Shown here in pieces: positions 17,288-59,263 of a stretch of DNA of 64,000 bases (positions within the stretch are counted from its first letter, which is position 1; the number at the start of each line of letters is the position of its first letter). The notes below the pieces were generated by a model. The model made no database searches, was not told the DNA's origin, and saw only the letters and a program-made list of their open reading frames with translations. The position numbers and the translations under genes are program-made. The stretch is from Candidatus Endomicrobiellum cubanum (GTDB lineage Bacteria > Elusimicrobiota > Endomicrobiia > Endomicrobiales > Endomicrobiaceae), in contig JAISYS010000042.1 of assembly GCA_031269735.1 (NCBI GenBank), positions 1 to 64,000 of the forward strand, read 5' to 3'.

Positions 17288-17416
17288 TCAACTGTCCTGC
17301 CGTGATTTTTTCTCATATGCCTCCGCACCCAGCTCTTGCTGTCTATAATAGGCATAGTCGCGAATTTTACGAATGTCCTCAAGCGTAAAATCCTTAGAAA
17401 TCTTAAGCTTTCTCAT
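17288..17416 (-). CDS. 42-aa small protein, possible HipA-associated partner
   Basis: Translated by hand: MRKLKISKDFTLEDIRKIRDYAYYRQQELGAEAYEKKSRQDS; start overlaps the 3' end of the HipA-like gene. Confidence 0.45.
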   Translation of the reverse strand: MRKLKISKDFTLEDIRKIRDYAYYRQQELGAEAYEKKSRQDS

Positions 17417-18587
17417 CGTCAGACTCCTCCTTTTTACAAGCATTTAACCATTGCTTTCTTTTCTCCACATTCTTACAACGTGATACAATAGCTTTAACTA
17501 ACTGTTCACTACGTTCAGTATCTATGTCAGTTGACCGTACTAATATCTTTACACATTCCTCTTCTATACCATCAAATGCCTTATAGTCGAACCAATTCAA
17601 ATCAGACACAAGACTTAATTGCTCATCATGTGAAAACATAAAAGGCCTACTTCTCTCTTCACGTCCAACAAACTTAGTATTATACCATAGAGACGAACCG
17701 CTATCAAATATAGGAGCAAATCCTTTCCATTCGAGAGTATCTGCATCTCTTATAAAACCAAAGTTATTAAAATGCCTATCTTCGTTCATTATTATATAAT
17801 CTAAAATAAGCATTTGTTCAAGCGAATGTCTAATGTTTACAATACCCGCTTTCTCACAACAATCTAACATGTGCATAAATTTTGCATCTACGATATCTTT
17901 TTGTATTAACTTATAAACACGCCATGCTGGTATTAACTCTGTATTAGGTGTAACAAAATTATCGCATAAACTATAAGGCCTCCCTTTATTAAAAGTCAAT
18001 GTATAGTTTACATGAGATATTTTTAATCTCCGCATAAGCGCACTAGCTATTACTTCATTAAAAGGCTCTTGCTTATAATCTTTATTACTTGCACCTTTCA
18101 TTAATACACGTTTTTTGTTTACAATAATCCATTTCTTTCGTAACACGCCATCTGCGGTATTATCTGGCGATATTAAACTTACGCTACTCATATCTTCAGG
18201 TATATTACCGAATAACATTACTCCCATATCCTCTGAAAAATCATTTTCAAAAAAATTCACATCTTTCCATTTTAATCCTATTCCTACTGGATTAATCCAA
18301 TACTGGTCTGATAAACTCAAACCATAACATTTTGCTGCAAGTATAGATGGGTAATATTCATCCAATGCTTGCAAAACATCTTTGACACCATCTCTGTTTA
18401 CAGGTATGGCACGACCTACCCACCAATCATTTAGTGCTTTACGTGGTATTTTTCCATCAAGCGCTTCTATTCCAATCGGCATGTGTCTATAATCAAAAAT
18501 ATTACCTATTCTACTTATATTTCCAAGCTCAACGTCCAATTCAAACTCTACAACTGGTATATTCTTATGCATCAGAATGCATTCCAT
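17403..18587 (-). CDS. HipA-like Ser/Thr kinase (copy A)
   Basis: IIMNEDRHFNNFGFIRD and FAPIFDSGSSLW kinase motifs; start chosen at MECILMHKN by homology to copy B. Confidence 0.7.
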   Translation of the reverse strand: MECILMHKNIPVVEFELDVELGNISRIGNIFDYRHMPIGIEALDGKIPRKALNDWWVGRAIPVNRDGVKDVLQALDEYYPSILAAKCYGLSLSDQYWINPVGIGLKWKDVNFFENDFSEDMGVMLFGNIPEDMSSVSLISPDNTADGVLRKKWIIVNKKRVLMKGASNKDYKQEPFNEVIASALMRRLKISHVNYTLTFNKGRPYSLCDNFVTPNTELIPAWRVYKLIQKDIVDAKFMHMLDCCEKAGIVNIRHSLEQMLILDYIIMNEDRHFNNFGFIRDADTLEWKGFAPIFDSGSSLWYNTKFVGREERSRPFMFSHDEQLSLVSDLNWFDYKAFDGIEEECVKILVRSTDIDTERSEQLVKAIVSRCKNVEKRKQWLNACKKEESDDEKA

Positions 18588-18600
18588 GTAAATCAACCTT

Positions 18601-19746
18601 TCACATTTGTTCTCGTATCTGCTCGATACGTTTACAACGTAAAGCAACGGCTTCTGCTATTTTTTTGTGACGCCCTTCATCTATAATAACTGCTTGCTTT
18701 AATATATCTAAACATTCATCTTCTATCCCATCAAGAGCTTTATAGTTAAACCAACTTAAATCGGACACTAATTTTATCTGTTCATCATGCAAACCCCTAA
18801 ATGGTTTACTTTCCATATCTCTACCAACAAACCATGAATTATACCATAAAGATGAGCCACTATTAAATATTGGAGCAAAACCTTTCCACTCAAGAGTTTC
18901 CGCATCTCTAATAAATCCGAAATTATTAAGATGCCTATCGCAATTCATTATAATATAGTCTAACGTAAGCATCCGTTCAAGTTCTTTTCTAATATCAAAA
19001 ATACCTACTTTCTCACAACAACGTAATAAATGCCTAAATATTGACTCTACTAAAGGGTCTCTCTTTTCTAAGTCATAAATTCTCCAAGCAGGAACGAGCT
19101 CTGTGAAAGGTGTAACAAAATTTTCACATAAACTATAAGGCCTACCTTTACTAAATATCAACATATACTCTGTATGTGATATATCTAATCTTCTCATTAA
19201 GGCACTGGCTATACCCTCATTAAAAGGTTCCTGTTTGCTTTCATATAGCTTACTAGCTCCTTTCATTAAAACACGTTTTCCATCCACTATAATCCATTTT
19301 TTACGCAATACACCGTCAGAAGTATTATCAGGAGATATTAAACTCACATTCTTACTAGCAGGATTATCGCCAAACAATATCTCTCCTACATCTTTTGAAA
19401 ATTCATTTTGAAAAAAGTTCACATTTTCCCATTTTAGTCCCATCCCATCGGGGCTAATCCAATACTGGTCTGACAAACTTAAACCATAACATTTTGAAAT
19501 AAGCGCATGCCTAGAATACTTACCTAAAATCAGTAAAGCATCTTCAATACCATCACGACTAGCTGGTATAGAACGTCCTTTCCACCACTTATCCATAAGA
19601 TATATATTAGCTTTACCTTTTTCGGTTGTACCAATCGGTAAGTGTTCTGGATTATATAACTCTTTAAGGTTAACAATAACTCCAATTTCATTTATAATAT
19701 CTAAAGCTATAACTGGGACGTTTTTATGCATCAGTATGCATTCCAT
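18601..19746 (-). CDS. HipA-like protein (copy B), metal-binding Asp replaced by Asn
   Basis: IIMNCDRHLNNFGFIRD retained, FAPIFNSGSSLW instead of FDSGSSLW. Confidence 0.7.
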   Translation of the reverse strand: MECILMHKNVPVIALDIINEIGVIVNLKELYNPEHLPIGTTEKGKANIYLMDKWWKGRSIPASRDGIEDALLILGKYSRHALISKCYGLSLSDQYWISPDGMGLKWENVNFFQNEFSKDVGEILFGDNPASKNVSLISPDNTSDGVLRKKWIIVDGKRVLMKGASKLYESKQEPFNEGIASALMRRLDISHTEYMLIFSKGRPYSLCENFVTPFTELVPAWRIYDLEKRDPLVESIFRHLLRCCEKVGIFDIRKELERMLTLDYIIMNCDRHLNNFGFIRDAETLEWKGFAPIFNSGSSLWYNSWFVGRDMESKPFRGLHDEQIKLVSDLSWFNYKALDGIEDECLDILKQAVIIDEGRHKKIAEAVALRCKRIEQIREQM

Positions 19747-20688: not shown

Positions 20689-21045
20689 CTAAGCCCCTCC
20701 TTTAACTCTTCCTGCTATAGCCTTATTACAAAATTTCAAAAGAGATGGAACCATATTAATCGCAGTTTTACATATTCGCATTTTATCCATCTCTGCATAA
20801 ATACACATATACCTTAAATCTTGAATCTCGTCCCATGAAAACTGTTCCTTTGTATACCACTTAAAAATAACAATTAAATTATCACTATACTCACATATTT
20901 TCAATAAATCTATGGCTACATAGTTAAAACTTAACTCATCTTTTATAAACATCTCATGCTCCCCTACGAACCTTTCTAGGACATCCATTATTCTTAAACA
21001 ATGGTTACGAATTTCAATAATTATATCCATATTTTTATTTTTCAT
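20689..21045 (-). CDS. HepT-like protein lacking the HEPN catalytic motif
   Basis: FSWDEIQDLRYMCIYAEMDKMRICKTAINMVPSLLKFCNKAI aligns with HepT C-terminus; RX4HXY reads RYMCIYAE. Confidence 0.6.
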   Translation of the reverse strand: MKNKNMDIIIEIRNHCLRIMDVLERFVGEHEMFIKDELSFNYVAIDLLKICEYSDNLIVIFKWYTKEQFSWDEIQDLRYMCIYAEMDKMRICKTAINMVPSLLKFCNKAIAGRVKGGA

Positions 21046-21050
21046 GTTAC

Positions 21051-21419
21051 CTACTCTTCCAGATTTCCTGTTAAAATCATATCACAAAACTGATAAAATA
21101 TTGTAGCATACACTACTGTAGTTTTCCAAATTAAGTCTATATCTACCTCAGTGTATGGTAACAATAGCATATCTCTTATATTACGAACTTCTTCCCATAT
21201 TATATACTCACTTGTAATATCTACAAAAGACTCAGTTAAATTTAAGCTTAATTCCCCTATCTGTAACAAGCACATAGACACAGCATTAAAATAAACTCTA
21301 TCATTTATAAAAACGTCATAATCTTTACCAAATCTATCTATACTGGCTATTATCTCTTCGCAATATCTACGCATATGCAAAATTATTTGCTTATTCTTAC
21401 TATTTATGTCGATAAACAT
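21051..21419 (-). CDS. HepT-like protein lacking the HEPN catalytic motif
   Basis: HMRRYCEEIIASIDRFGKDYDVF...WEEVRNIRDMLLLPYTEVDIDLIWKTTVVYATIFYQFCDMIL; catalytic His replaced by Leu. Confidence 0.6.
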   Translation of the reverse strand: MFIDINSKNKQIILHMRRYCEEIIASIDRFGKDYDVFINDRVYFNAVSMCLLQIGELSLNLTESFVDITSEYIIWEEVRNIRDMLLLPYTEVDIDLIWKTTVVYATIFYQFCDMILTGNLEE

Positions 21420-21582
21420 TTTTACAACTATACCACCTTCGTACTGCAAACATTCTCTCTATATCATTCTTAACCCACTTAAACTTTTTTATATAACACC
21501 AACGCCTTATAATCCAGTCACCGTTAGATGTCAAATTATGCTCAGTTACATAATGACTATCCTGCCTAATAATAGTAGTCAT
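21400..21582 (-). CDS. hypothetical small protein
   Basis: ORF between Fic and HepT-like genes. Confidence 0.3.
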   Translation of the reverse strand: MTTIIRQDSHYVTEHNLTSNGDWIIRRWCYIKKFKWVKNDIERMFAVRRWYSCKNVYRHK

Positions 21583-22415
21583 TAACTACTCTCCTTTACA
21601 AGCAATTCTCGACTTTTCAAAACATTTTGTTCACCAAACAACAAATTACCAAAAAATTTATTTAGATACATTAATGTTGATTTTACATTATTCTCTCTGT
21701 CATTGTAATTAGCACGTACGAGTGCATTACGAAAATAAAATGAGTGCTGTTCAAATGTATCATTCATTACTTTATATCCAAACATACGTAAATACTTGAT
21801 TACAAACACAGCAATAGTTCGAGTATTACCCTCACCAAAAGCATGAATTTGCCAAACATCCGCTACAAACTTTCCAATATGTTTCACTGCAGCCCGTGAT
21901 TCCAGATTACCATAATCAAAATCTTTCTCTCTGTTGAATTCGTAATCAAGAAGAGAACTTATATCATCACAATTACCATACACTACAGTATCTCCTTGTA
22001 AAACCCATTCTTTCTTAAAAATATTATACTTACGTATTTTACCAGCAAAATTATAAATACCCTCAAATAACTGCCTATGAATAGACATTAATTCTATAGG
22101 TGAAAGACTAAATGTTTTAGTCGACAATAATCGTACAATGCGCGCAGAAACTTTATCGGCTTCTTCTGTACCATTCTCTTTTTTACTTCTTGCCAATTCA
22201 CTAGCATAGTAATCAATAAGAAATTGCTCTACTTCATTTATCGAAATTTTACCTTCAATATGAGTGTTAGCTACATCAAGTAAAAATTTTGAAGGAATTA
22301 AACCATCCACTTTTTGCAGCCCAATAGCTGTTTTCCAATTATAGATACGCTCAACTAATTCTGGTTCTACTTGTTTTTCATAATCGCCCATTTGCGCAAA
22401 CGACATTCCTAACAC
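21582..22415 (-). CDS. Fic-domain protein with N-terminal helical regulatory segment
   Basis: IHAFGEGNTRT Fic motif; N-term GLQKVDGLIPSKFLLDVANTHIEGKISINEVEQFLIDYY. Confidence 0.8.
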   Translation of the reverse strand: MLGMSFAQMGDYEKQVEPELVERIYNWKTAIGLQKVDGLIPSKFLLDVANTHIEGKISINEVEQFLIDYYASELARSKKENGTEEADKVSARIVRLLSTKTFSLSPIELMSIHRQLFEGIYNFAGKIRKYNIFKKEWVLQGDTVVYGNCDDISSLLDYEFNREKDFDYGNLESRAAVKHIGKFVADVWQIHAFGEGNTRTIAVFVIKYLRMFGYKVMNDTFEQHSFYFRNALVRANYNDRENNVKSTLMYLNKFFGNLLFGEQNVLKSRELLVKESS

Positions 22416-22446: not shown

Positions 22447-23094
22447 TCATCTGCCTTTAGCGCTTCTGTTGTAAAGGGTCTTTTTATTCTTTTGAGTAAT
22501 TGGCGAAATAATACGACTTAACATAACCATCATTGCACTATAATTTTTATCAAAAGCTAACACACTCGCTTCTATCATCTCACTACTTTCAACTGCAGAA
22601 AAATCAACATTATAGCCTGCATTCTTCGCAAGATATTCAATAAAAACCCGTTGCGTTCTACCATTACCTTCTCTGAATGGATGTAACACATTTATCTCAC
22701 TTAAATAATAGGCTAAACCTCCTCTTATGTCATCTAAATTTCTTCCTATAAGAAAATTATCCGCTTTAAGTTTAGAGAAAAGGTCTGCCGCATATCCATG
22801 TATAACATTACACATACAAAATGGATTTCCCTTCATGATGTTTACGCTTCTAATCTTTCCAGCCCAATCGTAAATATCACGAAAAATTGCTCGATGTATT
22901 GAACAAAGATGGGCAAAATCAAATTTACCTCGCACAGGATTTACTCTTATCTCTGCTATTGCAAGTGTGGTTATCTCCCTCTCAAGTTTTTCAAGGTCTT
23001 CTTTATTCCTAATATCTAATTTATTTTTCAAGATGAATGTTCCTGTATAACAATATCTACTATCCCACTTATACTCATAATCATATTTACCCAT
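22447..23094 (-). CDS. Fic toxin (class I, AMPylation)
   Basis: LHPFREGNGRTQR canonical motif; directly downstream of VbhA-type antitoxin. Confidence 0.85.
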   Translation of the reverse strand: MGKYDYEYKWDSRYCYTGTFILKNKLDIRNKEDLEKLEREITTLAIAEIRVNPVRGKFDFAHLCSIHRAIFRDIYDWAGKIRSVNIMKGNPFCMCNVIHGYAADLFSKLKADNFLIGRNLDDIRGGLAYYLSEINVLHPFREGNGRTQRVFIEYLAKNAGYNVDFSAVESSEMIEASVLAFDKNYSAMMVMLSRIISPITQKNKKTLYNRSAKGR

Positions 23095-23430: not shown

Positions 23431-23985
23431 CTAAATTACACTAACTCCAGTAATCTGATAAAACTTCTCTATATCAAAATTTGGTATGCTTATTATAGCT
23501 TTCTTATTCTTTAATGGTAATTCTTTCCAAAACTGTTGTGATTTTTCTGTGGTAACTCTTCTTAAAAAATAATCTGCCTGCTTACTCTCTGGAGATATCT
23601 CGCGTTCTTCATCTGTCATATCAGTCCAAAAAATAGACTCTACTGGTCTAAAATGCATGGTTAGTAATTGACAGGCCCATGAGTCTCTCCATCTATCAAC
23701 TGTCAAATCTGAAGGTTTATCAAAAAACATCAAATCAGAATGATTTTTCGTATTAAAACAACCAATATTATTGTCAGATATATTCCAATCTCCAACATTA
23801 AAATTACCAACATTAAAATTACCAGTATTACTATTTCCAAAATTGTAACACCCGGTATTCTCATTTCCTACATTATACTGCCCAGTATTTCTATTCCCCA
23901 CATTACACATAGCAGTATTATAATTTCCAATATTCCTATACCCAGTATTTCCTTCTCCTGCATTACCCATTGTAAATTCACTCAT
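23431..23985 (-). CDS. NxG pentapeptide-type repeat protein with unique C-terminal domain
   Basis: Repeats NTGYRNIGNYNTAMCNVGNRNTGQYNVGNENTG...; C-terminal ~100 aa non-repetitive. Confidence 0.65.
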   Translation of the reverse strand: MSEFTMGNAGEGNTGYRNIGNYNTAMCNVGNRNTGQYNVGNENTGCYNFGNSNTGNFNVGNFNVGDWNISDNNIGCFNTKNHSDLMFFDKPSDLTVDRWRDSWACQLLTMHFRPVESIFWTDMTDEEREISPESKQADYFLRRVTTEKSQQFWKELPLKNKKAIISIPNFDIEKFYQITGVSVI

Positions 23986-24130: not shown

Positions 24131-26428
24131 TTACTTTATTTGCAATTCTCGACTTTTTAACTCATTTTGCTCGCCAAACAACAAATTACCAAAAAATCTA
24201 CTTAGATAACCTACTGTCGTAAATCTAGTATAATCATTAGCACGTACTAGTGCATTACGAAAATAAAAGGAATGCTGTTCAAACACATCAGTAGACACAT
24301 TGTACCCAAAAGTCCTGAGATACTTTATCGCAAACACAACTACAGTTCGGGTATTGCCTTCTTCAAAAGGGTGTACATGCCAAATATCGGCTATAAATCG
24401 ACAAATCTTCTCCACTCTGGTACATAGTTCCAGTTTACCATAATCAACATCTTTCTCTCTATCAAATACATAATTTATAAATGTAGATATATACTTATAC
24501 TCAGCATACTGTACACTGTCTCCGTTAAGTACCCACTCTTTCTTGTAAATATTATACTTGCGCAATTGCCCAGCAGACTCATAAATACCCTCAAATAGTT
24601 GATTATGAATAGAGATTAGTCCCTCAAGCGAAAGACTAAACTCGCTATTAGATAATATCTGAGGAATACGCTCAGCTACTTTTTCTGCTGCCTCTATACC
24701 GTTTTCATATTTACCACTTTCAATTTTGTTAGTATAGTAAGCAGTACTAACTTGGTCTACTCGTTTTTCATATTGCAGTAATTGCATGTCAATTATTTCA
24801 CTCGCAATGTCACACTTCTTTTTATTATGCGCAACACCCATACAAAGAACTTTCCCTTGTAAGCCCGCATAGTACCTCTTTTCTTTTATCTGGCTTAAAG
24901 CTTGGATTTTTAGTTTCGCAGTATCCTCACCTTGCTTAAACTCTATTATTATATGAGGATGATTCTGGCGTAAAGATTCCATTCTAATATCGCTTCTACC
25001 ATCACCAGTTTCAAGATTGCTTGTTATACTATAATAGTTATCAAGAGTTAGACCCATACCAAGAAAAAGCATGTGATAGGCATTTTCCTTAGTGTCATAA
25101 TAACTTGTACAACTAAGCACAATATCTCTGTAGGCATTGGTAAAACCATTCATATCACCGTTAGTTAAACAACGAAGCATAGCGTTCGTCTTCGAAATTC
25201 CAAATCTAGCCTGCTCAGCAAACATGCGTTGTAATTCTCTTTTTACTTCATTATTAGGAATTTTTGCAGTTACATATACACTTCCCATATCATATTCTAT
25301 TTGGGCTGCAGTTATATACCCTGTATTAATCAAAAGCCCCCATAATGTGTCAGAGTCTGACCGCTCGGCATACGCCGTTTTCAAATTCGCTGTAACCGTA
25401 ACCTCCCCTTTTTCCAACATTTTATAATAAGCATCAGTAAAATCCAGCGGAGCCTCGCTCATCAATTTTGTTACCATCATATTAGACGATGTATTTACCC
25501 AATAGGGCTCCAATACTTTATTACGTGTGTAATTCAAAATAGACCAAGGATTATAAATGTTGTTACCATCAACAACATAGCCGTCATACATCCGTCGGAC
25601 GCCTTCTGTTAATTCAATCCCATAATAAGAAAGTAGGTTTTCTGTCTCTTTTTCTGTCAATCCGAAGTGGGCAGCATATATTTTGTCCAAAATTGTATAG
25701 ACAGCTGGGTTATTTAATTTTGAGAAAATACTTTCTTTAGCTACTCGTTGTATCCCAGTTAAAATCGCTCTGTCTAAATTTTTATTACTCTTGAGAGCAT
25801 CACCTAAAAACCCAGAGAAAAAAGTGTCTATCTGTTTCTTATAGTTATTCTCATAAGCAGACATAATAGGGGTATCGTATTCATCTATAAGTAGTAAAGG
25901 CTTTTTATCATACAGGCTTTTTGCTACCTCAGTCAATGTTAGTAGACTATATTTTATATGGTCAAAACTAATTTCTTTTGCTCGAAGACAGTGATATAGT
26001 GTTTCCAATCTCCAATACTGCGAATCCTCGAAATCAACTTTGTTACTTCGTGCTAATTTATAATACCGCGAAACTTCTGGTTCTATAACAGCGCATAAAC
26101 TTCCAAGTAAACCCTCCGCTGTATTTGATTCACAACCTTTGAAGGAAAAATATATCACTGGCTTAGTGTTCATCTCAGCCATATATTTAGTATCGCTTAT
26201 TTTTAGCCCTGCAAATAGTTTTTTACTATCTACAGTTATATCAAAAAACTCTTGAAGCATAGTCATATTTAAAGTTTTACCAAAGCGCCTCGGTCTTGTT
26301 ATAAGAGTAACTTCATCACCACCATCTAAAAAATCGTGAATTAACATAGTTTTATCCACATAATAATAATTATCTTCAATTATCTTGCGGAAATAATCTA
26401 CACCTATTGGTATCTTTTTCTTCTCCAT
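24131..26428 (-). CDS. AAA-ATPase-like (PF09820-type) + PD-(D/E)XK nuclease-like + C-terminal Fic domain fusion, copy 1
   Basis: ITRPRRFGKTLNMTML; LLLIDEYDTPI; GRSDIRMESLRQNHPHIIIEFKQG; HVHPFEEGNTRT. Confidence 0.8.
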   Translation of the reverse strand: MEKKKIPIGVDYFRKIIEDNYYYVDKTMLIHDFLDGGDEVTLITRPRRFGKTLNMTMLQEFFDITVDSKKLFAGLKISDTKYMAEMNTKPVIYFSFKGCESNTAEGLLGSLCAVIEPEVSRYYKLARSNKVDFEDSQYWRLETLYHCLRAKEISFDHIKYSLLTLTEVAKSLYDKKPLLLIDEYDTPIMSAYENNYKKQIDTFFSGFLGDALKSNKNLDRAILTGIQRVAKESIFSKLNNPAVYTILDKIYAAHFGLTEKETENLLSYYGIELTEGVRRMYDGYVVDGNNIYNPWSILNYTRNKVLEPYWVNTSSNMMVTKLMSEAPLDFTDAYYKMLEKGEVTVTANLKTAYAERSDSDTLWGLLINTGYITAAQIEYDMGSVYVTAKIPNNEVKRELQRMFAEQARFGISKTNAMLRCLTNGDMNGFTNAYRDIVLSCTSYYDTKENAYHMLFLGMGLTLDNYYSITSNLETGDGRSDIRMESLRQNHPHIIIEFKQGEDTAKLKIQALSQIKEKRYYAGLQGKVLCMGVAHNKKKCDIASEIIDMQLLQYEKRVDQVSTAYYTNKIESGKYENGIEAAEKVAERIPQILSNSEFSLSLEGLISIHNQLFEGIYESAGQLRKYNIYKKEWVLNGDSVQYAEYKYISTFINYVFDREKDVDYGKLELCTRVEKICRFIADIWHVHPFEEGNTRTVVVFAIKYLRTFGYNVSTDVFEQHSFYFRNALVRANDYTRFTTVGYLSRFFGNLLFGEQNELKSRELQIK

Positions 26429-26482
26429 GTTTATTCACCTTTCTGTTAACTAGTTTCAATTAAAAACTCATTAAAATCTTTC

Positions 26483-28783
26483 TTACTTTATTTGCAACTC
26501 TCTACTTTTTAACTCATTCTGTTCACCAAATAATAAATTATCAAAAAACCTATTTAAATAACTCACTGTTATAGACCTAACATAATCATTTGCACGTACT
26601 AAAGCATTACGGAAATAGAAGGAATGCTTCTCAAATTCTTCATTAGACACATCAAACCCAAAAGTACGAAGATATTTTATTACGAACATAACAATAACTC
26701 GCGTATTACCTCCTTCAAAGGGATGAATATGCCAAATATCAGCTATAAATCTACAAATCTGCTCTACTGTGGCACGTGAGTCCAACTTACTATAATCAAC
26801 AGTTCTCTCTTTATCAAAGGCATACTTTATAAAAGTATGTATATAAGTAGAATCAGCATATTGTATACTGTCCCCATTAAGTATCCACTCTTTCTTATAA
26901 ATGTTGTACTTTCGTATTTTTCCAGCAGACGCATAAATACCATCAAATAGCTGATTATGAATATAGGCTAACTCCTCAAACGAAAGATTAAACTCGCTAT
27001 CAGATAATACGTAAGGAATACGCTCAGCTACTTTATTTGCTACTTCTATACTGTTTTCATATTTACCGTTTTCTAACTTATTAATATAATAATCGATACT
27101 AAATTGCTCTACTTGGTTTTCATGACGCATTAATTGTGTGTCAATTATTTCACTTGCGATATCACATATCTTCTTATTATGCGCTACACCAAGACAAAGT
27201 ATTTTTCCTTGCAGACCAGCATAATATCGCTTCTCCTTTATTTGACTTAACGCTTGGCTTTTTAGCTTTGTAATATCTTCACCTTGCTTGAATTCTATTA
27301 CTATGTGTAGATGATTCTGGCGTAAAGACTCCATTCTAATGTCGCTTCGACCATCGCCAGTTTCAAGATTACTGGTAATCTTATAGTAGTTATCTAACGT
27401 AAGAATCATTCCAAGGAAAAGCATATGATAGGCATTCTCCTTTGCATCGTAATAACTTGTACATCTAAGTACAATATCTTTATATACTTTTGAGAATTCA
27501 TCAATATTACCTTCCGTTAAAGCTTCAAGCATGTCATCCAGAGCAGAAGAAGTTAATTGTGTCTGTTCGGCAAATATTTGTTGTAATTCCTTTTTAACTT
27601 CATTATTTGGTATTTTAATTATTAAACGATTATACGAAATTTTTGAGCTAACAGCTGTCAAATAACCAGTGTTAAGTAACAGCCCCCATAAAGTAGCGGC
27701 ACTGGCTTGTTCAGCATACGCTGTTTCTAAATTTACCGTTACAGTAATCTCGCCTTCTTTAAGCATTTTATGATAATTATCCGTGAAATCTCGCGTAGCC
27801 TCACTCATCAGTTTTCTTACCATAGTGTTGGATGACGTATTAACCCAGTATGGCTTTAACACTTGCATTTCAGCATAATTCAAAATAGACCAAGGATTAT
27901 AAATATTAGTACCATCGATGATATAACCATTATACATGCGCCGGACGCCTTCGGTTAATTCCATCCCATAGTAAGAGAGAAGTTGTTCTGTCTCTCTCTC
28001 TGTCAACCCAAAATAAGCGGCATATTTTTTATCTAAAATCGTATAGACAGAGAGATTGTTTAATTTGGAGAAAATGCTTTCTTTGGCTACTCGTTGTACT
28101 CCAGTTAAAATCGCTCTGTCCAAGTTTTCGTTATCCTTAAGGGCGGCACAGAGAAAACCTGAAAAAAAAGTAGAAACTTGGTCTCTGTAATTATTCTCAT
28201 AGGCAGACATGATGGGAGCATCATATTCGTCTATGAGTAACAGTGTTCTTTTATTATAAAGATTTTTTGCCACCTTGGTTAACATAAATAAACTAGATTT
28301 TAGTTGGTCGAAATTAATTTCTCTCGATTGTAGCAAGTCATTTAATCTTCTCAGTTCTTGATAAGGTGACTTATTGAAATTGGTATTTTTATCCAATAAT
28401 AAATTATAATACCGCGAAACTTCCGACTCCATGATGACACATAAACTTTCCAGCAAACCTGCCGAAGTGTTTGACTCACAATCTTTGAAAGAAAAAAATA
28501 TCACTGGTTTGGTGTTTATTTTGTCCATACATTTTGTATCACTTATTTCCAGACCTACGAACAATTTTTTGCTATCAACTGCCATATCAAAAAACTCTTT
28601 GAGCATAGTCATGTTAAGGGTCTTGCCAAAGCGCCTCGGTCTTGTAATTAGAGTAACCTTGCTGCCGGTGTTCAGAAAATCATGGATTAGCATAGTTTTG
28701 TCCACATAATAATAATTGTCTTCTATTATTTCGCGAAAAGAACTCACGCCTATTGGTATCCCTTTTTCCTTCATGCTACTCAC
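26483..28783 (-). CDS. AAA-ATPase-like + PD-(D/E)XK nuclease-like + C-terminal Fic-like domain fusion, copy 2
   Basis: ITRPRRFGKTLNMTML; LLLIDEYDAPI; GRSDIRMES...IEFKQG; HIHPFEGGNTRV (Fic acidic residue replaced by Gly). Confidence 0.8.
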   Translation of the reverse strand: MSSMKEKGIPIGVSSFREIIEDNYYYVDKTMLIHDFLNTGSKVTLITRPRRFGKTLNMTMLKEFFDMAVDSKKLFVGLEISDTKCMDKINTKPVIFFSFKDCESNTSAGLLESLCVIMESEVSRYYNLLLDKNTNFNKSPYQELRRLNDLLQSREINFDQLKSSLFMLTKVAKNLYNKRTLLLIDEYDAPIMSAYENNYRDQVSTFFSGFLCAALKDNENLDRAILTGVQRVAKESIFSKLNNLSVYTILDKKYAAYFGLTERETEQLLSYYGMELTEGVRRMYNGYIIDGTNIYNPWSILNYAEMQVLKPYWVNTSSNTMVRKLMSEATRDFTDNYHKMLKEGEITVTVNLETAYAEQASAATLWGLLLNTGYLTAVSSKISYNRLIIKIPNNEVKKELQQIFAEQTQLTSSALDDMLEALTEGNIDEFSKVYKDIVLRCTSYYDAKENAYHMLFLGMILTLDNYYKITSNLETGDGRSDIRMESLRQNHLHIVIEFKQGEDITKLKSQALSQIKEKRYYAGLQGKILCLGVAHNKKICDIASEIIDTQLMRHENQVEQFSIDYYINKLENGKYENSIEVANKVAERIPYVLSDSEFNLSFEELAYIHNQLFDGIYASAGKIRKYNIYKKEWILNGDSIQYADSTYIHTFIKYAFDKERTVDYSKLDSRATVEQICRFIADIWHIHPFEGGNTRVIVMFVIKYLRTFGFDVSNEEFEKHSFYFRNALVRANDYVRSITVSYLNRFFDNLLFGEQNELKSRELQIK

Positions 28784-33298: not shown

Positions 33299-33883
33299 CT
33301 AAGATACAGACTTTTCGATTACAATTTGTGCTATAGCTGGGTTATCAACTTGTTGCACACACACTAACTCTATAAAATCCTCACTATATTCATCCAAATT
33401 CAAAGTGTAAGTTGAATTATTATACTTAAACCATAACATCAATAACTCTCTTATCACCTCGAAATTCCCCTGTCTAAATGGATGTATATTATAAAAAGCA
33501 GATAGAATTTTACTAACATTAGATACTAATTCCACTCTATCAGATGAGTATTCATCAAACAATAGTAATAAATCTTGCAATCTTGACGATATTTCCTCAT
33601 AATCACAAAAAACACTATGGATATTATCTTCATCCATATAAAAGTTGCCTTTACGAAAAGACCCTGCCCAATTCACCAAATCCCTAAATAAAGCTTTATG
33701 CACATTTTTAACATGTGTGACAGTAAACTTTCCATGTACAGGATTAACTCTAAAATCTTTTATTTTTGCATCAATATATATCTTATACATATCGACATAC
33801 TCATCAAAAAGTATAACATTACACTTATTTTTCAATATTGAGCTTCCTGCATAACAATAAGAATCTGGTTGTTGATAAAACAT
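33299..33883 (-). CDS. Fic-like protein with degenerate active site
   Basis: Same family as 22447..23094 (FRVNPVHGKF, VHKALFRDLVNWAGSFR) but motif reads IHPFRQGNFEVIR. Confidence 0.65.
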   Translation of the reverse strand: MFYQQPDSYCYAGSSILKNKCNVILFDEYVDMYKIYIDAKIKDFRVNPVHGKFTVTHVKNVHKALFRDLVNWAGSFRKGNFYMDEDNIHSVFCDYEEISSRLQDLLLLFDEYSSDRVELVSNVSKILSAFYNIHPFRQGNFEVIRELLMLWFKYNNSTYTLNLDEYSEDFIELVCVQQVDNPAIAQIVIEKSVS

Positions 33884-49521: not shown

Positions 49522-52500
49522 TCATCTCTCTCTTACTAAGTTCAATCTGGCAGCTTGTCTATCCATTAAAGTATTGTAATAATCCCAACCATTTGCTTGT
49601 TTAGGGCCGACAAGTGTACTCACGTTTGTGTCCCTAAAATCAATTAATCGTTCAAATAGGCTAGAATGCTTAGAAAACCCAATGTTTCTCCAATCCTTAG
49701 CTGCTATTATAATCACATTGACTAGTAAGAATAGATATGTCACTTGAATAACTATCTGTATTAACAAACACACTGTAGTAGATAACTGCAAACTAGGTAG
49801 ATACATAGACAACTTATTAAATATGCTATTTACAAAGTTCATAAAACATATCAATAAGACTGTACACACATACCCAAAATAAGACTTGTTCTCCTTTCTT
49901 AAAAGTAACTTAAACACAAAAATACTAACCATTACCAATATAAAAACTGCTATAACTGCTAAAGGTTTAATAAAACTACCCAAAAACGTAATAATATATA
50001 AAATAGCAGCTATATATATAGCTGGAGTACCACCAGTTTCTAAGACAAATCTCGAAAAAGACGTAGGAGATTGTCTCATTACAACATCTCTGTGTGCCAT
50101 TGATAAACGAATCAAGTCTTCATTTGAAACTTCATATATCTCTAAACAGTCAGCTGATTGTGTGTTGAAAATCTTATTATGATACAGTGCTAAATCTAAA
50201 GCCATGCATTTAATGAATGTCTCATCAGTTACCTTGCCTATAAGAGTTTTATTTTTAGCTATATACTGTTTCATATGATTCGAAATTAAATCTATTCTCT
50301 TTATAATTTGCTCTTCTCTAATAGTCCTATTACACCATTGCGATTCTCCTACATTGGCAATAGTAAGCGGTGAATAAATTGGCACAGCCCAATCAACAGA
50401 AGGCGTTATATCGTACAATTCATATAACCCTAAAACATCTAATTCACCCTCCATGAAATCCAAACTATTAAAATAGGCGCTTACATTCCCTACAGTCTTT
50501 ATTCTACCCCCCTTTTGTATCTTTGTCGTATACGCATAAATATTATACTGTCTGTTATAATTATTCACATTCCATAAAAGGGCATCTATAAACGCATAAT
50601 ATGGAGAATAAAAGGATGCAGGAGTACCTGTTGAGGCAACTTGATATATATTACGAGTACCAGGGTCAAAAGTTATAAAAGTAGAATCAAATAAAGTATC
50701 CGTGCTAACGTATAACCCATCATTAACAGTTTCAATCCCCTCTTGCCCAACTGCAAAATGATTTTCATTATATGCGGCATAAATATCCTCTAACGATTTG
50801 AAGGTTGAAGAGGATAATATATCCCCAAATAAGTCTATCCAATGCATGTCTAACGAATCTAACTTCAGATACATCTTAGTCGCTATCTCAGGCTCTGTTA
50901 CTTCAACTACCCCTATCTCATTTCCTGATTCCCGCTTTTCTAAATTTAACATCTGCAGGTAAGAAGCTTCTTCCTGTAATAAATATTTATTTGCTTCATA
51001 ATAAGTTAAATCAAACACAGTAGGAACTAATAAAATCACAGACACAACTAGTAATAATACACCAAGACACTTAAATATAGTTCTAAACGACAAAGAATTA
51101 CCAGCAGCATCTAAATAGATAGTTATCATCCAAATTATAATAATAAATAGCATTATTAGTTTATATACGAAAAGCACTATATACTCTATGCCATCCATAA
51201 AAGCGAAATTTGGTATTTTTATATTTGTGTTAAAAGTACCAGATTTTAAAGATTCAATTAATTGCTCTAATTTATAAGCCATCAGCAATCCTTGCTGAGT
51301 TAGTCTCATACCTACATTTAAGCCTTCTTCTATTTTGTTTATATTCTCTATAGGAGCTCCTCTTAATACTTCCAAAATATTATTGATATATCTTGAAAAA
51401 TCTATACCACCTCTTGTTAAATCATACGAATATATAGATTTAAGAGCACTTAATGTAGATAAATTTTGAGTTGATAATTCAGCAACATCTAAATCACCAC
51501 TAAAAGCAGTAATTTGTTTTATTTCCCAGTAATCCCCTTCTATAGCCATCATATCTGATAAAACACTATCTACATTGTTAAAATCAGCTGGAATCTTATA
51601 GCTATCTCCATAAAAAGATAAAAACCCAGTATTATAGGGCTTATAGTTTGCTGTATGCAAAGTTGCATTACTTGCAGCAGGAATAACAACAACGCCACTT
51701 TCTGTCAATATATTACCGTAAATATCCATGTAAAGTGGAGAAGTCATATCTAAATTCAAATTATAACCAATTGGCATATTAGCTTCTAAATTCTTCAATA
51801 GCGCATAATTGAAAATAGTATTTTTATAAATCTTCTCTGCAGTTTCTATTGTTGGTAAAACAGGAGATGACATAAAAATGGGTTTAGGATTCCTAACATA
51901 AAATTGAACCTTAGAAAATAAAACTTTGTCTCTATATATACCAGATACTACGGCTGCTGACTGTAACACAGAATATTGCTTTGCTTCGTCATCTTCTAAT
52001 GATAGGTATTTTTTGATATCATTTGTTGACAATAAAATACCATTAAAAGGAAAAAGACCTTGCTCTCCTGATTCATTATACTCAGCAACGTTAGAACTTA
52101 TAAATTGACTATATACTTGCTTCTCAGCTGATTTGAACAATTCATAAATGCTAGTAGTAAAAGTATCTTTTACTTTAGTCCATAGTTGGTCTAACCACGA
52201 ACCAGTATCAGAAGCAGCATCAATATTATCTAACCTAGATATAGCAACATCTCTCATATCTGCTAATTCAAACAAATTATAAAAATTATCGTCCAAATAT
52301 AAAACAATATCTTTATCCGCATTCATTAAGTCTTTTAATGTAGCTACTCTTAGGGCTCCTGTTCTTCCCGTATTAAAATAGTCCACAGCAGCTTCCACAT
52401 TTGTATCTATATATAGAGCTTTTCTGTGAAATCCAAAATTATAATGAAACCCATTAATAAAGTCCTCATTCGATGATAAATTTATTGTCATGGGGTCATA

Positions 52501-53886
52501 CGTGCTGGTTTTCATAGGCACGTACATAGCAGATAATGAAATTCCTTCTAGTATGTCACTGGACAACTTTGACGAAGTCACATCAAAGAAATGCTTAAAG
52601 GGCTTACCTATAGTAGACACATCATAATTAGCTAACGAATCAAAAACATTTATATTAGCTAGGCTTGTATAGACTTTAGCTAAACTATTGAAATCAGATA
52701 ACTCTTCACCTAAGTCAAGCTCCTTATTCCACATAGTTTCTAGCTCATTTGAATATAAAAAGTCTAACCCTCTTCTAACAGATAATAATCCTTGTAAATA
52801 TAACTGTAGAGACGCGTAATCTTGATTCTTTACATAAGGAGCTATTTTTGTTATATAAACTGTAGAATAATAACTTAACTCGTTTACAGTCGCTAATAAA
52901 GCAATATAGGCTTCACTGTTTATAGATGTCATAATCCTAGAAGAAGTAAAATAAGGCACTACTGGAAAGAATAAACTTGTAGCTACATTTTCATATATCA
53001 AAGAGTAAACATTTTCATTCACACCATACTCACTTGGATTAAATTGAGTTAAAGCAGCTAGATACTTAACTCTCGATTCAAATGTTAGCATATTTTTCAT
53101 GCCATCATCTGTTACCTGTACACTCAGTAACGAATTAAAATCATCTAAAGCAGTCTCTAAAACTGAAGTAGATACTCCTAAACTTAAATCATCCGTATTT
53201 GTCATTTCAGCTATATTTATCTCTGTCGTTGCTTGTGAGTTTGGTAACTTTAAAAAAGAGTAAATTTTATATCTTTCCCAATCTGTAAGACTGTATGCAA
53301 CTGAAAAATCAAAACCACTTAGCCCAGCCCACGCTTTTTGTGCAGACACAGCAGCTTTATCTAAATCTGACGTAGGGTTAGCATTGATTAGGCTAGCTTC
53401 CCAATCTGATTTAACCTTAATGAGCTCGGAAGTTATTCTTTCACTTAAAAATATATCCAAATTTTCTTTTAATACTATACCTACATCTTCGTCCACCCAG
53501 TAATTTATTAAAGACTCTGCAACTGTTGAACTAATGTCATTTCCAAATGATTCCTTAAAATACGTAACTAAGCCCTCTACATTATTCGTAAATCTGGAAA
53601 ACTCCTCACGTATAGCATTACGAAAATTAATATAATCTATTTCATTATTATTTCTACGCACACGTACATTATTCAAATCTACTACTTGATTATTTTCTAA
53701 TCCTTGTAAGAAGAGTAAGAAATCAACTCTCTCTCCTGGACTCATTGTAGCATAATCAATATAACCATCAGGTCCCTCAACTACCATATAAGTCGCGTCA
53801 GAAGAGCCGACTAACGTATATGCTGCATATAAATTGGTACTGTATATAAAAAATATAAATACCAATATAAAAAATACCTTTCTCAT
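49522..53886 (-). CDS. very large secreted/membrane protein (1454 aa), VirB6-like C-terminal TM region
   Basis: Signal peptide; two clusters of TM helices near aa ~870-960 and the C-terminus. Confidence 0.5.
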   Translation of the reverse strand: MRKVFFILVFIFFIYSTNLYAAYTLVGSSDATYMVVEGPDGYIDYATMSPGERVDFLLFLQGLENNQVVDLNNVRVRRNNNEIDYINFRNAIREEFSRFTNNVEGLVTYFKESFGNDISSTVAESLINYWVDEDVGIVLKENLDIFLSERITSELIKVKSDWEASLINANPTSDLDKAAVSAQKAWAGLSGFDFSVAYSLTDWERYKIYSFLKLPNSQATTEINIAEMTNTDDLSLGVSTSVLETALDDFNSLLSVQVTDDGMKNMLTFESRVKYLAALTQFNPSEYGVNENVYSLIYENVATSLFFPVVPYFTSSRIMTSINSEAYIALLATVNELSYYSTVYITKIAPYVKNQDYASLQLYLQGLLSVRRGLDFLYSNELETMWNKELDLGEELSDFNSLAKVYTSLANINVFDSLANYDVSTIGKPFKHFFDVTSSKLSSDILEGISLSAMYVPMKTSTYDPMTINLSSNEDFINGFHYNFGFHRKALYIDTNVEAAVDYFNTGRTGALRVATLKDLMNADKDIVLYLDDNFYNLFELADMRDVAISRLDNIDAASDTGSWLDQLWTKVKDTFTTSIYELFKSAEKQVYSQFISSNVAEYNESGEQGLFPFNGILLSTNDIKKYLSLEDDEAKQYSVLQSAAVVSGIYRDKVLFSKVQFYVRNPKPIFMSSPVLPTIETAEKIYKNTIFNYALLKNLEANMPIGYNLNLDMTSPLYMDIYGNILTESGVVVIPAASNATLHTANYKPYNTGFLSFYGDSYKIPADFNNVDSVLSDMMAIEGDYWEIKQITAFSGDLDVAELSTQNLSTLSALKSIYSYDLTRGGIDFSRYINNILEVLRGAPIENINKIEEGLNVGMRLTQQGLLMAYKLEQLIESLKSGTFNTNIKIPNFAFMDGIEYIVLFVYKLIMLFIIIIWMITIYLDAAGNSLSFRTIFKCLGVLLLVVSVILLVPTVFDLTYYEANKYLLQEEASYLQMLNLEKRESGNEIGVVEVTEPEIATKMYLKLDSLDMHWIDLFGDILSSSTFKSLEDIYAAYNENHFAVGQEGIETVNDGLYVSTDTLFDSTFITFDPGTRNIYQVASTGTPASFYSPYYAFIDALLWNVNNYNRQYNIYAYTTKIQKGGRIKTVGNVSAYFNSLDFMEGELDVLGLYELYDITPSVDWAVPIYSPLTIANVGESQWCNRTIREEQIIKRIDLISNHMKQYIAKNKTLIGKVTDETFIKCMALDLALYHNKIFNTQSADCLEIYEVSNEDLIRLSMAHRDVVMRQSPTSFSRFVLETGGTPAIYIAAILYIITFLGSFIKPLAVIAVFILVMVSIFVFKLLLRKENKSYFGYVCTVLLICFMNFVNSIFNKLSMYLPSLQLSTTVCLLIQIVIQVTYLFLLVNVIIIAAKDWRNIGFSKHSSLFERLIDFRDTNVSTLVGPKQANGWDYYNTLMDRQAARLNLVRER

Positions 53887-55828: not shown

Positions 55829-58800
55829 TCACCTCCCTAGTATGCCTACTACTGCTCTAGTAATCCAAGCTATAATTTCTAAAATCAATCCGTTTTGAAA
55901 TAAACCAAACCCTATAAGTGCTACAACACATCCAATTGTCAGTTTACCTATATTAATAGTTTCCACTGTCTGCCTACCAAATGTTAAAAACTTATATGGG
56001 TCAAATACTTTGTTACAAAAAACTCTCCAAGCCTTTACATCAGCTATCATTACTAACCCTAACAATAGCAAGAAAAAGAAAAAGAATATTCTTGGCAATA
56101 TACTTATGACAACTACAACACATACTGTAATAATATCATCTAAATGCGTTACAAATCCATAAAATGTAAAGTTATCCCAATCAAATGCTCTTTTTACTTC
56201 ACCTTCTGTTAATTCTGGTTTATTTTCCTCCCCTATTTCGCCTGCTACTGATGTAAATACTTGTCCTGCGTAGCTAAATATTTTTATTCCATACGTTTGA
56301 AATATAAGTCTAAATATACTATCAGAATCAGCACTAGTTGACCCTATAATCACTCCCCCTGCATCAGGAGAAAAAGAAAGAACTTGCATATCGCCATTAG
56401 TTACTTTATATACACTCATAGTGCCATAGTAAATGCTACTTCGTAAAAGAGCTGTAAATGACTCCCACGTATGCAATTCACTCTCTCGTAATAAATAGGA
56501 TACCGCAATTGGAGCAGTCCTTATTTCCATAGAAGGCATAAGTGAACGTTCTATAGTAGCTGTATTGCTATTCAATGCAGCGTTGTACACTTGAGTTACA
56601 GACTCGCTAACTCCAGGTCTTCTTTTAACGTAATCTTTTGGAAATAATCCATACTCAAGAGTAACAAAATCTCTATTAGCGTTTTTATAACTAAAGATAT
56701 TTAGATTCATATCAATAAATTTACCATCTGGTCTAATATAAAACGGAAGAAATGTATCAGCATAGTAAGCTGATTGAGAAAACTCAGATATTCGTTTTGG
56801 TTTATACACATAACCATCACCTGTATAAGTTATATCTGTAGGATTCGTAGTCGTAGCGTTTGAATCTGGCAGTAGAAAGGAAGAATAAACTAACCAATCG
56901 CTTGGCACATCATAAAACAACTGATTCTTAAACATAGTACGAGCTTCACTGTCCGTAACTGTTACATTCGGATTTTTTAACTTAAATGTAAATATGCTAT
57001 CGACACTTGTTACACCTGTCATATTACGATATATCAAATAATTAGCTAATTTATATGAAGAGCTTAACACTATGTTATTATTCGCATCTACAGTTATTCT
57101 TTCATCTGTATTATTAAAAGGCAGAGACACAGGTTTAGTATTCTCCAAACCCCAAGTATGGCGCAAATTAGAAATAGACACAACACCATTCTCGTCCGTA
57201 AATAATAGATACTGTGAAGTCCAACCAATTACTGCTCTATAGTCAATAAAAATTTCTCCATTAGCTTCGTAAACAAGTTTGGTGTTTTCTGGTACGTCGT
57301 AAACGGTATTACCATTTATTATCCGATTATGCTCTTCATCTATATAAATATTTTGAGTATCTGAGTACAATAACCAAGTATAATCATTAATTCTTTCTAA
57401 TCCAGTAATCCATTGCTTGTTTAACAGATAATCATAAGAAACTAATACTTCATCGCCATCTCTTCCAAGAGCTGGAAATGTTTTTATTGGAACAGAACCT
57501 TCTATTTGCGCTAATCCTACATCGAAAAATGTATTTAATGCTTTATCTAAATCAACCCCATTATAAGGGATATTTAATATATTTGTCTCCGTACCATCAG
57601 CTTCCTGTATTCTATCTCCCACAATACTTTCATCTATGGTAACTGACCCACGTTGTTTAATAGTAGCAATAACTTTGTATATCATAGGTATTAAATCATC
57701 TAAAGGGCTAAGATATATTCTTTCATTCACACTAGTTAAACTTGTCCTTTTTCTGTCTATATCTACATATGCTATATCATTACTGCTCAAAAAAGGCGTT
57801 CTAGTAAATTTATTATTTTCTTCTCCAATATGATAATATCCACCGCCTTGTTGAATTAAAAAATTAGAAGGAGAATCAAGAGGATTAACCGTGTTTATTG
57901 TGATTAAACCGTCTTGTGTTAAAATGCTACTAGGTAAATTAACCGGTATAACAAAATGATAATAACCGTCCTCTTCACCCAAATAATAGGCACCTTCTAA
58001 CTTATCAGTAGATAAATCATTGGGACTAGTAGATACAATTAAATTATTTACAGGCGTCCCTGCCCTATCTACAAATCTTGTTTTATCTGCTACAATCTTT
58101 ATAAAATAATCATAATGTGTAGCGACAGAGTAATTTGGCGTAATGCTTACGATTTTGACGATATCTTCTCTTTCCTGTACACTAGTAGGATAATATCCTA
58201 AATCTAATATAGATTTATCATAAGTAAATGTAATATTCTTAAAGGTATCTCTTGAATCTATATCCTTAACCCTCATTAAAATTAATAATGCAGTGTTTAA
58301 GTCACAAGGTTTTGTAAAACTATAGTTAACATCTACTATTCCTCGCGCTAATAAATACCTAACAGCATCTAATTCTATACTTGGTAGGGAATAAGGTAAA
58401 ACTCTACCATAAACTTCCAATAAATAAGCTTCTTCCATATCAGTTAAAACTGGCTCTCCATACCTATCCATAAATTTTTGAACTAATAAACAAAACTGCG
58501 CTAATGTTAAATTAACATCTGACTCATTTTCAGATATAATATAATCGTCTTTAGCTCTCTGCCAATATCTCTCCGCATTTACACGACTAAGAAAAACTTT
58601 GGTTAGTCCTTGACTTACATCAACAGTATTTATATTTATAGAAAGCATTGATGCGAATGGGGATGAAGGTAGAGTATAATCTCCGGCATAAGATTGACTA
58701 TACATATCAATATATTGTACACCAATAGCTCTATAAATGTTCATTATCGCCCATTTTTTACTTATATTGCTACTTGGTTGTTTTACAACTGAATAAGATG

Positions 58801-59263
58801 AAGGGAAAACAAATTTATCACTTATTAATAAAGAATCAAACCCTAAAATCTCTAAAGCTCGCTCTGCTACACCTTCTTGATTTATAACATCTTTACGCAA
58901 ATTATTTTGTGTTAATATCCACGAGCCATCATACACAGCACCAAATTTATTTTTAACATATACAAACGGTTTTAAGTCTGGAATTTCCTCTACAGTAGGA
59001 TTATAATAAATGTTAAATAAATTATTATTCTCATCCTCAGGGTCTAACATTGCATTATTAACAGACTCTAACATTGTTACTTTAACATTATCAAATCCAA
59101 CAGCCTCTCTTTGACCAAAATCTGTTACTAGTATCTGCTGACTATTACACCCAGTAGCAACAGTTGATTCTCCTTCAAATGTAATTATGGTTTCAGCAAA
59201 TAAAAATGATGGAATACACAACATAATGATTACACACATAATGACATAGATATATTTCATCAT
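55829..59263 (-). CDS. large surface protein (1144 aa), possible SLH-like N-terminal region and C-terminal TM anchor
   Basis: Signal peptide; segments like LLARGIVDVNYSFTKPCDLNTALLILMR; C-terminal TM helices. Confidence 0.45.
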   Translation of the reverse strand: MMKYIYVIMCVIIMLCIPSFLFAETIITFEGESTVATGCNSQQILVTDFGQREAVGFDNVKVTMLESVNNAMLDPEDENNNLFNIYYNPTVEEIPDLKPFVYVKNKFGAVYDGSWILTQNNLRKDVINQEGVAERALEILGFDSLLISDKFVFPSSYSVVKQPSSNISKKWAIMNIYRAIGVQYIDMYSQSYAGDYTLPSSPFASMLSININTVDVSQGLTKVFLSRVNAERYWQRAKDDYIISENESDVNLTLAQFCLLVQKFMDRYGEPVLTDMEEAYLLEVYGRVLPYSLPSIELDAVRYLLARGIVDVNYSFTKPCDLNTALLILMRVKDIDSRDTFKNITFTYDKSILDLGYYPTSVQEREDIVKIVSITPNYSVATHYDYFIKIVADKTRFVDRAGTPVNNLIVSTSPNDLSTDKLEGAYYLGEEDGYYHFVIPVNLPSSILTQDGLITINTVNPLDSPSNFLIQQGGGYYHIGEENNKFTRTPFLSSNDIAYVDIDRKRTSLTSVNERIYLSPLDDLIPMIYKVIATIKQRGSVTIDESIVGDRIQEADGTETNILNIPYNGVDLDKALNTFFDVGLAQIEGSVPIKTFPALGRDGDEVLVSYDYLLNKQWITGLERINDYTWLLYSDTQNIYIDEEHNRIINGNTVYDVPENTKLVYEANGEIFIDYRAVIGWTSQYLLFTDENGVVSISNLRHTWGLENTKPVSLPFNNTDERITVDANNNIVLSSSYKLANYLIYRNMTGVTSVDSIFTFKLKNPNVTVTDSEARTMFKNQLFYDVPSDWLVYSSFLLPDSNATTTNPTDITYTGDGYVYKPKRISEFSQSAYYADTFLPFYIRPDGKFIDMNLNIFSYKNANRDFVTLEYGLFPKDYVKRRPGVSESVTQVYNAALNSNTATIERSLMPSMEIRTAPIAVSYLLRESELHTWESFTALLRSSIYYGTMSVYKVTNGDMQVLSFSPDAGGVIIGSTSADSDSIFRLIFQTYGIKIFSYAGQVFTSVAGEIGEENKPELTEGEVKRAFDWDNFTFYGFVTHLDDIITVCVVVVISILPRIFFFFFLLLLGLVMIADVKAWRVFCNKVFDPYKFLTFGRQTVETINIGKLTIGCVVALIGFGLFQNGLILEIIAWITRAVVGILGR

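What the first reader, a model, noticed from the sequence alone, without database searches (positions are those of the whole stretch)
24131..28783. Tandem AAA-ATPase / PD-(D/E)XK / Fic triple-domain fusions
Two adjacent ~765-aa proteins join the AAA-ATPase-like (PF09820-type) + PD-(D/E)XK domains, widespread in Clostridia/Bacteroidetes and of unclear function, to a C-terminal Fic domain. Both keep RPRRFGKT, LLIDEYD and GRSDI...IEFKQG. The Fic part is homologous over its length (linker included) to the stand-alone Fic protein 21582..22415, e.g. FFGNLLFGEQNxLKSREL and FEQHSFYFRNALVRAN. A P-loop ATPase, a nuclease and an AMPylation-type domain in one chain suggests a defence or toxin effector; I do not know this fusion as characterised.
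Basis: partly seen in the sequence, partly recalled or inferred. Interest (0 to 1): 0.85.

Follow-up and report, generated by a model that had tools for sequence, protein, structure and literature searches.

The report
ATPase-nuclease-Fic fusion pair on plasmid
A plasmid-like DNA element carries two neighbouring genes in which a common but uncharacterised bacterial ATPase-nuclease has been joined to a Fic (AMPylation-type) toxin domain that lost its built-in antitoxin part, a combination found nowhere else in the genomes searched; what the fused proteins do is untested.

Summary
Two intact minus-strand ORFs (765 and 763-766 aa) each carry PF09820 AAA-ATPase_like, PF08011 PDDEXK_9 and PF02661 Fic domains. 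They are 72% identical and dN/dS is 0.125, so this is not an assembly or frameshift artefact. (1) The Fic part belongs to PADLOC family PDC-S72. All 44 aligned stand-alone members open with a conserved VbhA-antitoxin-like module (W..AIGLQ..D); both fusions lack it, with the ATPase-nuclease in its place. (2) The unfused state exists: a Gracilibacteraceae MAG encodes an 82% identical ATPase-nuclease that stops right after the nuclease (ASEIISG*), plus a separate Fic gene. Trees and synonymous divergence suggest that the ATPase genes duplicated first and the Fic cassette reached both later. (3) f1 keeps the Fic catalytic residues; f2 has lost the invariant Glu. No other such fusion was found in about 1,130 genomes, the best 80 genome-collection loci, plasmids, phages or viral contigs. 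The host contig is a 156-kb plasmid-like replicon of uncertain host. Best mechanism (inferred): an ATPase-gated two-effector growth-inhibition or defence protein.

The parts
24131..26428 (-). f1: AAA-ATPase_like + PDDEXK_9 + Fic fusion, 765 aa
25724..26410 (-). f1 PF09820 AAA-ATPase_like domain (Walker A RPRRFGKT, Walker B LLIDEYD)
   Evidence: AF2 pLDDT mostly above 90
24800..25090 (-). f1 PF08011 PDDEXK_9 nuclease domain (D480, E496-x-K498)
   Evidence: D/E/K invariant in alignment A3; not modelled because homologous rows were misaligned there
24761..24790 (-). f1 junction between nuclease C-terminus and Fic segment (residues ~547-556)
   Evidence: unfused 82% identical relative stops at ...ASEIISG; codon view
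24317..24634 (-). f1 PF02661 Fic domain
24347..24373 (-). f1 Fic motif HPFEEGNTR (His, Glu, Gly, Asn and Arg kept; Thr at the Gly/Lys position, as in the whole family)
26483..28783 (-). f2: tandem paralogue of f1, same three domains (766 aa from GTG; likely ATG start at 28774)
28070..28756 (-). f2 PF09820 domain
27155..27442 (-). f2 PF08011 nuclease domain
26669..26986 (-). f2 PF02661 Fic domain
26699..26725 (-). f2 Fic motif HPFEGGNTR (invariant Glu replaced by Gly)
   Evidence: Glu in 45 of 46 members, Gly only in f2
21582..22415 (-). stand-alone Fic of family PDC-S72, sister of the f1/f2 Fic parts; motif HAFGEGNTR
22236..22358 (-). VbhA-antitoxin-like N-terminal module of the stand-alone Fic (WKTAIGLQKVDGL...), absent from f1 and f2
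   Evidence: PF18495 found in 31 of 46 alignment members; residues invariant in 44 of 44; no second copy found on the contig

Best explanation
f1 is a derived single-chain protein in which an ATP-binding AAA+ module gates two effector domains: a PD-(D/E)XK nuclease and a Fic AMP-transferase. The Fic part came from a close relative of the neighbouring stand-alone Fic (PDC-S72). In stand-alone members an N-terminal VbhA-like module is the likely brake on the Fic active site; it was lost at the join, so the ATPase-nuclease part has taken over control, by steric or NTP-state gating. On a trigger (invading DNA, phage or a competing element) the protein would damage nucleic acid and AMPylate an essential target, stopping growth to the benefit of the resident replicon. 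f2, with a damaged Fic motif but ATPase and nuclease motifs kept under purifying selection, would be a partner subunit. Shown: architecture, intact motifs, absence of the VbhA-like module, existence of unfused relatives, purifying selection, plasmid-like context. Supported by trees: order of evolutionary events. Inferred: gating, enzymatic activities, target, trigger, benefit.
For: Three domains above cut-off in both ORFs. PDC-S72 match covers model 6-271 in the stand-alone Fic, but only 58-270 in f1 and 35-270 in f2. PF18495 VbhA in 31 of 46 alignment members; W27, A30, G32, L33, Q34 and D37 invariant in 44 of 44 stand-alone members and absent in f1/f2. f1 Fic motif intact. dN/dS f1-f2: AAA 0.08, nuclease 0.02, Fic core 0.24. 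Fic fold by AF2 and Foldseek, best against Bep/FicT/VbhT-type Fic domains, several solved with antitoxins. Unfused relatives with 82% identity. Neighbours on the same strand: FicT-like 22447-23094, MNT and HepT-like genes, two HipA-like genes. The role of the inhibitory helix in Fic proteins is established (PMC3667792).
Against: No biochemical or genetic data on any PF09820-PF08011 protein was found. PADLOC has no model matching the ATPase-nuclease half. f2's Fic motif is damaged and the Fic core shows the weakest constraint of the three domains (0.24), as a decaying passenger would. The fusion is known from one contig of one assembly. The VbhA-like module of this family reads GLQxVDG rather than the textbook (S/T)xxxE(G/N), so its inhibitory role is itself inferred.
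Confidence: 0.4

Rival explanations
1. Passenger fusion: the ATPase-nuclease gene read into a neighbouring Fic copy by deletion or recombination, the two halves work independently, and the Fic part is drifting toward loss.
For: f2 has lost the invariant Glu; a long branch (0.71) leads to the f1/f2 Fic pair; Fic dN/dS is higher than in the nuclease; other toxin-like paralogues on the contig carry substituted active sites.
Against: Fic core dN/dS 0.24 and C-terminal tail 0.10 are still well below 1; f1 keeps the catalytic residues; the cassette is present in both tandem copies rather than lost.
Confidence: 0.3
2. Selfish or recombination nuclease: PF09820-PF08011 proteins act mainly in the spread of their own gene or element, and the added Fic domain makes loss of the gene or plasmid costly (addiction), with the neighbouring stand-alone Fic or f2 as antagonist.
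For: The family multiplies, recombines and moves horizontally (PMC6387759, PMC12039267). In the Gracilibacteraceae MAG the copies have 42-49% G+C against about 60% for their contigs, and two contigs start at the same residue of the gene. Location on a plasmid-like replicon.
Against: No transposition end, target duplication or homing signature was looked for or seen; no antitoxin ORF lies between f1 and f2 (54 bp gap).
Confidence: 0.2
3. Assembly or frameshift artefact.
For: A metagenome-assembled contig of unsure binning.
Against: Two diverged copies (75.7% nucleotide identity) carry the same junction, both are uninterrupted, and codons across all domains show purifying selection.
Confidence: 0.02

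Closest known systems
DUF1703 proteins (PF09820 AAA-ATPase_like + PF08011 PDDEXK_9), PMC1913061 and PMC6387759
   Same: Same two N-terminal domains in the same order, RPRRFGK(S/T) Walker A, DEYD Walker B, D...ExK nuclease motif.
   Different: Every homologue whose full frame was seen ends shortly after the nuclease (frames ~500-635 aa); f1/f2 add ~210 residues of Fic.
PDC-S72 stand-alone Fic proteins (PADLOC phage-defence candidates)
   Same: Fic core and C-terminus align over ~210 residues, 44-60% identity; motif HxFxEGNTR.
   Different: f1/f2 lack the N-terminal VbhA-like module and the C-terminal HTH of many members and carry an ATPase-nuclease instead; f2 lost the motif Glu.
VbhT/VbhA and FicT/FicA toxin-antitoxin pairs (PDB 3ZC7, 5JFF)
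   Same: Fic fold (TM-score 0.70-0.76 normalised to the solved domains).
   Different: No separate antitoxin ORF next to f1/f2; the antitoxin-like module is lost; motif has GNT instead of GNG.
SoFic anti-phage Fic proteins (PMC12249575)
   Same: Fic AMP-transferase reported to act in anti-phage growth arrest.
   Different: SoFic has no ATPase or nuclease; the fusions' Fic does not match the PADLOC SoFic model at E<=0.01.

Membership tests
DUF1703 / PF09820+PF08011 ATPase-nuclease | PF09820 above curated cut-off with RPRRFGK(S/T) and DEYD | tested here: met
   (147 and 150 bits, cut-off 26.1)
DUF1703 / PF09820+PF08011 ATPase-nuclease | PF08011 above cut-off with D, ExK residues | tested here: met
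   (54 bits, cut-off 25.5)
DUF1703 / PF09820+PF08011 ATPase-nuclease | protein ends after the nuclease domain | tested here: not met
   f1/f2 continue ~210 residues into a Fic domain; homologues do not
Fic AMP-transferase (PF02661) | PF02661 above cut-off and Fic fold | tested here: met
Fic AMP-transferase (PF02661) | HPFx(D/E)GN(G/K)R motif | tested here: inconclusive
   f1 HPFEEGNTR (Thr at the Gly/Lys position, as in the whole family); f2 HPFEGGNTR lacks the acidic residue
Fic AMP-transferase (PF02661) | AMP transfer to a protein | not testable with these tools
   needs enzyme assay
PDC-S72 Fic | full-length match including N-terminal VbhA-like module | tested here: not met
   f1 matches model 58-270, f2 35-270 of 377; stand-alone Fic matches 6-271
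Fic toxin-antitoxin (classes I-III) | inhibitory helix in cis or from a partner ORF | tested here: not met
   VbhA-like module absent from f1/f2 and found once on the contig, in the stand-alone Fic; a diverged partner is not excluded
Known anti-phage defence system | match to a defence model for the whole protein | tested here: not met
   only the Fic part matches PADLOC candidate models

The most novel reading that the evidence does not exclude
An AAA+/nuclease module has replaced a Fic toxin's built-in antitoxin as its control element, making an NTP-gated two-warhead (nuclease plus AMPylase) immune or addiction protein, with a Fic-damaged twin as partner or brake.
Probability: 0.25. Interest if true: 0.75.

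Novelty: new variant of a known kind. Interest (0 to 1): 0.5.

Why it matters
PF09820-PF08011 proteins are abundant and multiply in many genomes, yet no experimental role was found for them. A fusion to a Fic domain that has lost its antitoxin module is a natural hint that the ATPase-nuclease can regulate a toxin and acts in growth arrest, defence or element competition. Because the unfused parts exist separately in another genome, the idea can be tested by comparing separate and fused forms.

Tried and rejected
Assembly artefact: rejected. Single fusion followed by tandem duplication of the whole gene: disfavoured, because the AAA-nuclease tree pairs f1 with an unfused relative (99/100) and rejects f1+f2 as a clade (AU p 0.0009), whereas the Fic tree pairs f1+f2 (100/100), and synonymous divergence drops at the junction. 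Search for other fusions: none among the 85 order, 97 class and 345 phylum genomes of the MAG's own lineage (nested sets), 76 genomes of the order of G345 and 392 of the class of G346, the best 80 genome-contig loci plus 8 viral loci by Fic, viral loci by AAA, plasmids and phages. Viral scans with single proteins found nothing. A solved structure of the AAA-nuclease by sequence: none. AF2 of f1: ATPase and Fic parts are good, but the nuclease part (443-535) failed because MAFFT placed the homologues' nuclease residues under the Fic domain; that is a fault of my alignment, not evidence against the domain. One Foldseek hit to a maltose-system regulator structure (8bob, E 1.6e-4, rmsd 19.5) is too loose to use. 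Relatives of the replicon: no full-length counterpart of one large protein in congeners, and no match of the TraG/HerA-like ATPase in seven other genomes. A secreted effector aimed at a host was considered and not pursued: no secretion signal was tested.
Full report
WHAT IS THERE. The two ORFs exist as described: f1 at 24131..26428 and f2 at 26483..28783, both on the minus strand and 54 bp apart. f2 is better started at the ATG at 28774, behind AGAAGGGTGA; f1 has AGAAAGGTGA before its ATG. hmmscan places PF09820, PF08011 and PF02661 in that order in both, all above the curated cut-offs. f1 and f2 are 72% identical in protein and 75.7% in DNA. dN/dS is 0.125 overall, 0.08 in the AAA domain, 0.02 in the nuclease, 0.24 in the Fic core and 0.10 in the C-terminal tail. 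Two diverged, uninterrupted, constrained copies with the same junction rule out an assembly or frameshift artefact.

THE FIC PART. It is 55/54% identical to the stand-alone Fic 21582..22415, and all three match PADLOC candidate family PDC-S72. The stand-alone protein matches model positions 6-271, f1 only 58-270 and f2 35-270. The missing piece is an N-terminal module, consensus W.TAIGLQ.VDGL.PS.YL...A...I.G.I. Pfam recognises it as PF18495, antitoxin VbhA, in 31 of 46 alignment members (E<=1, best 5.6e-5; not in the window's own Fic). In 44 of 44 stand-alone members W27, A30, G32, L33, Q34 and D37 are invariant; in f1 and f2 the module is absent, and no second copy was found on the contig. 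The textbook inhibitory motif is (S/T)xxxE(G/N) (PMC3667792); this family has GLQxVDG instead, so an inhibitory role is likely by homology but not shown. AF2 of the stand-alone Fic is confident (pLDDT 92.7) and Foldseek finds Fic proteins, several solved with antitoxins; the Fic part of f1 gives TM-scores of 0.70-0.76 to EcFicT and VbhT, normalised to those domains.

CATALYTIC RESIDUES. f1: HPFEEGNTR. f2: HPFEGGNTR. Stand-alone: HAFGEGNTR. In 46 aligned members H, F, G, N, T and R are invariant and the acidic residue is Glu in 45; the exception is f2. The AAA and nuclease motifs are intact in both.

ORIGIN. In the Fic tree f1+f2 form a clade (100/100) on a long branch (0.71), sister to the stand-alone Fic of the window (100/91), next to Gracilibacteraceae locus L039 (98/94). 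The genome behind L039 (G345, 'Gracilibacteraceae bacterium isolate Nc350_bin127') encodes ATPase-nuclease pieces at 83%, 82% and 71% identity to f1. Two of these pieces end right after the nuclease (...HNKKQCGIASEIISG* and ...HNKKQCEIMSEVING*), where f1 and f2 run on with ...ASEIID(M/T)QL... into the Fic part; the Fic of G345 lies on another contig. In the AAA-nuclease tree f1 pairs with the unfused L202 (99/100) and a clade f1+f2 is rejected (AU p 0.0009). Windowed synonymous differences between f1 and f2 are near saturation over the ATPase-nuclease (mostly pS 0.57-0.77) and fall to 0.28-0.43 from about codon 561, rising again toward the C-terminus. The simplest history is: ATPase-nuclease duplication; fusion of a PDC-S72 copy to one of them, with loss of its VbhA-like module; transfer of the Fic segment to the tandem copy by recombination. 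Saturation and the small number of sequences are caveats.

DISTRIBUTION. No second fusion was found in any collection or genome set searched. Fic matches lie in frames of ordinary length (241-425 aa), and ATPase-nuclease matches in frames up to about 635 aa.

CONTEXT. The contig is 155,790 bases, with almost all long ORFs on one strand, no tRNA and an exact 55-base terminal overlap that falls in a repeated gene: consistent with a circular plasmid, not proof. It carries a DnaB-like helicase and a TraG/HerA-like ATPase whose plasmid relatives are 145-628-kb plasmids of Bacillus and Rossellomorea at 20-25% identity. The bin appears to belong to the Endomicrobia: L011 from G052, a genome of the same family, is identical to L052, an 'Endomicrobia bacterium' record. 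But the contig differs from the rest of the bin in G+C and 4-mers, one of its large proteins has no full-length counterpart in 42 congeners, and its closest Fic and ATPase relatives are in Bacillota. The host is therefore uncertain. Within about 11 kb lie toxin-like genes: HipA-like pair, MNT, two HepT-like ORFs, FicT-like and Fic.

INTERPRETATION. I favour an ATPase-gated protein with two effector domains, the AAA-nuclease part having taken the place of the Fic antitoxin module (confidence 0.4). The main rival is a passenger Fic in slow decay (0.3), which the f2 substitution suggests and which the remaining purifying selection argues against. A selfish/addiction reading (0.2) fits the mobility of the family. 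None of the enzymatic steps has been tested.

LITERATURE. PF09820+PF08011 is the DUF1703 architecture (PMC1913061), expanded and recombining in Cardinium (PMC6387759), function unknown. PF09820-like AAA domains are listed for RdrA, PARIS and Old-tin (PMC10952713). Fic proteins in anti-phage arrest: PMC12249575. No paper in the held library was found that describes a Fic fusion to this family; subscription papers are mostly not held.

Noticed in passing
window 17403-19746, 20689-21449, 22447-23094, 33299-33883, 59662-61266: Several toxin-like families occur as paralogues of which one or both carry active-site substitutions: HipA-like (IFDSGS / IFNSGS), FicT-like (HPFREGNGR / HPFRQGNFE), two HepT-like ORFs without the expected RxxxxH motif, and a PF09820 protein with RPPGFGKS, LLIDNYD and no ExK.
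   Followed up: partly
whole contig C51 (155,790 bases), window = 1-64000: Replicon-sized contig with nearly all long ORFs on the minus strand, no tRNA, DnaB-like helicase, TraG/HerA-like ATPase, CWB2 surface protein and 55-base terminal overlap; perhaps a plasmid of a Bacillota-like host binned with an Endomicrobia MAG.
   Followed up: partly
window 49522-53886 and 55829-59263: Proteins of 1454 and 1144 aa without any Pfam match at E<=0.1.
   Followed up: no
G345 contigs C139, C32, C14 (L202, L203, L205): ATPase-nuclease copies with lower G+C (0.42-0.49) than the rest of their contigs (about 0.60); two contigs begin at the same residue of the gene, as if broken at a shared repeat.
   Followed up: partly
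window 23431-23985: Pentapeptide-repeat protein between f1 and the FicT-like gene (PF01469); some pentapeptide proteins protect gyrase, a known Fic target (own knowledge).
   Followed up: no
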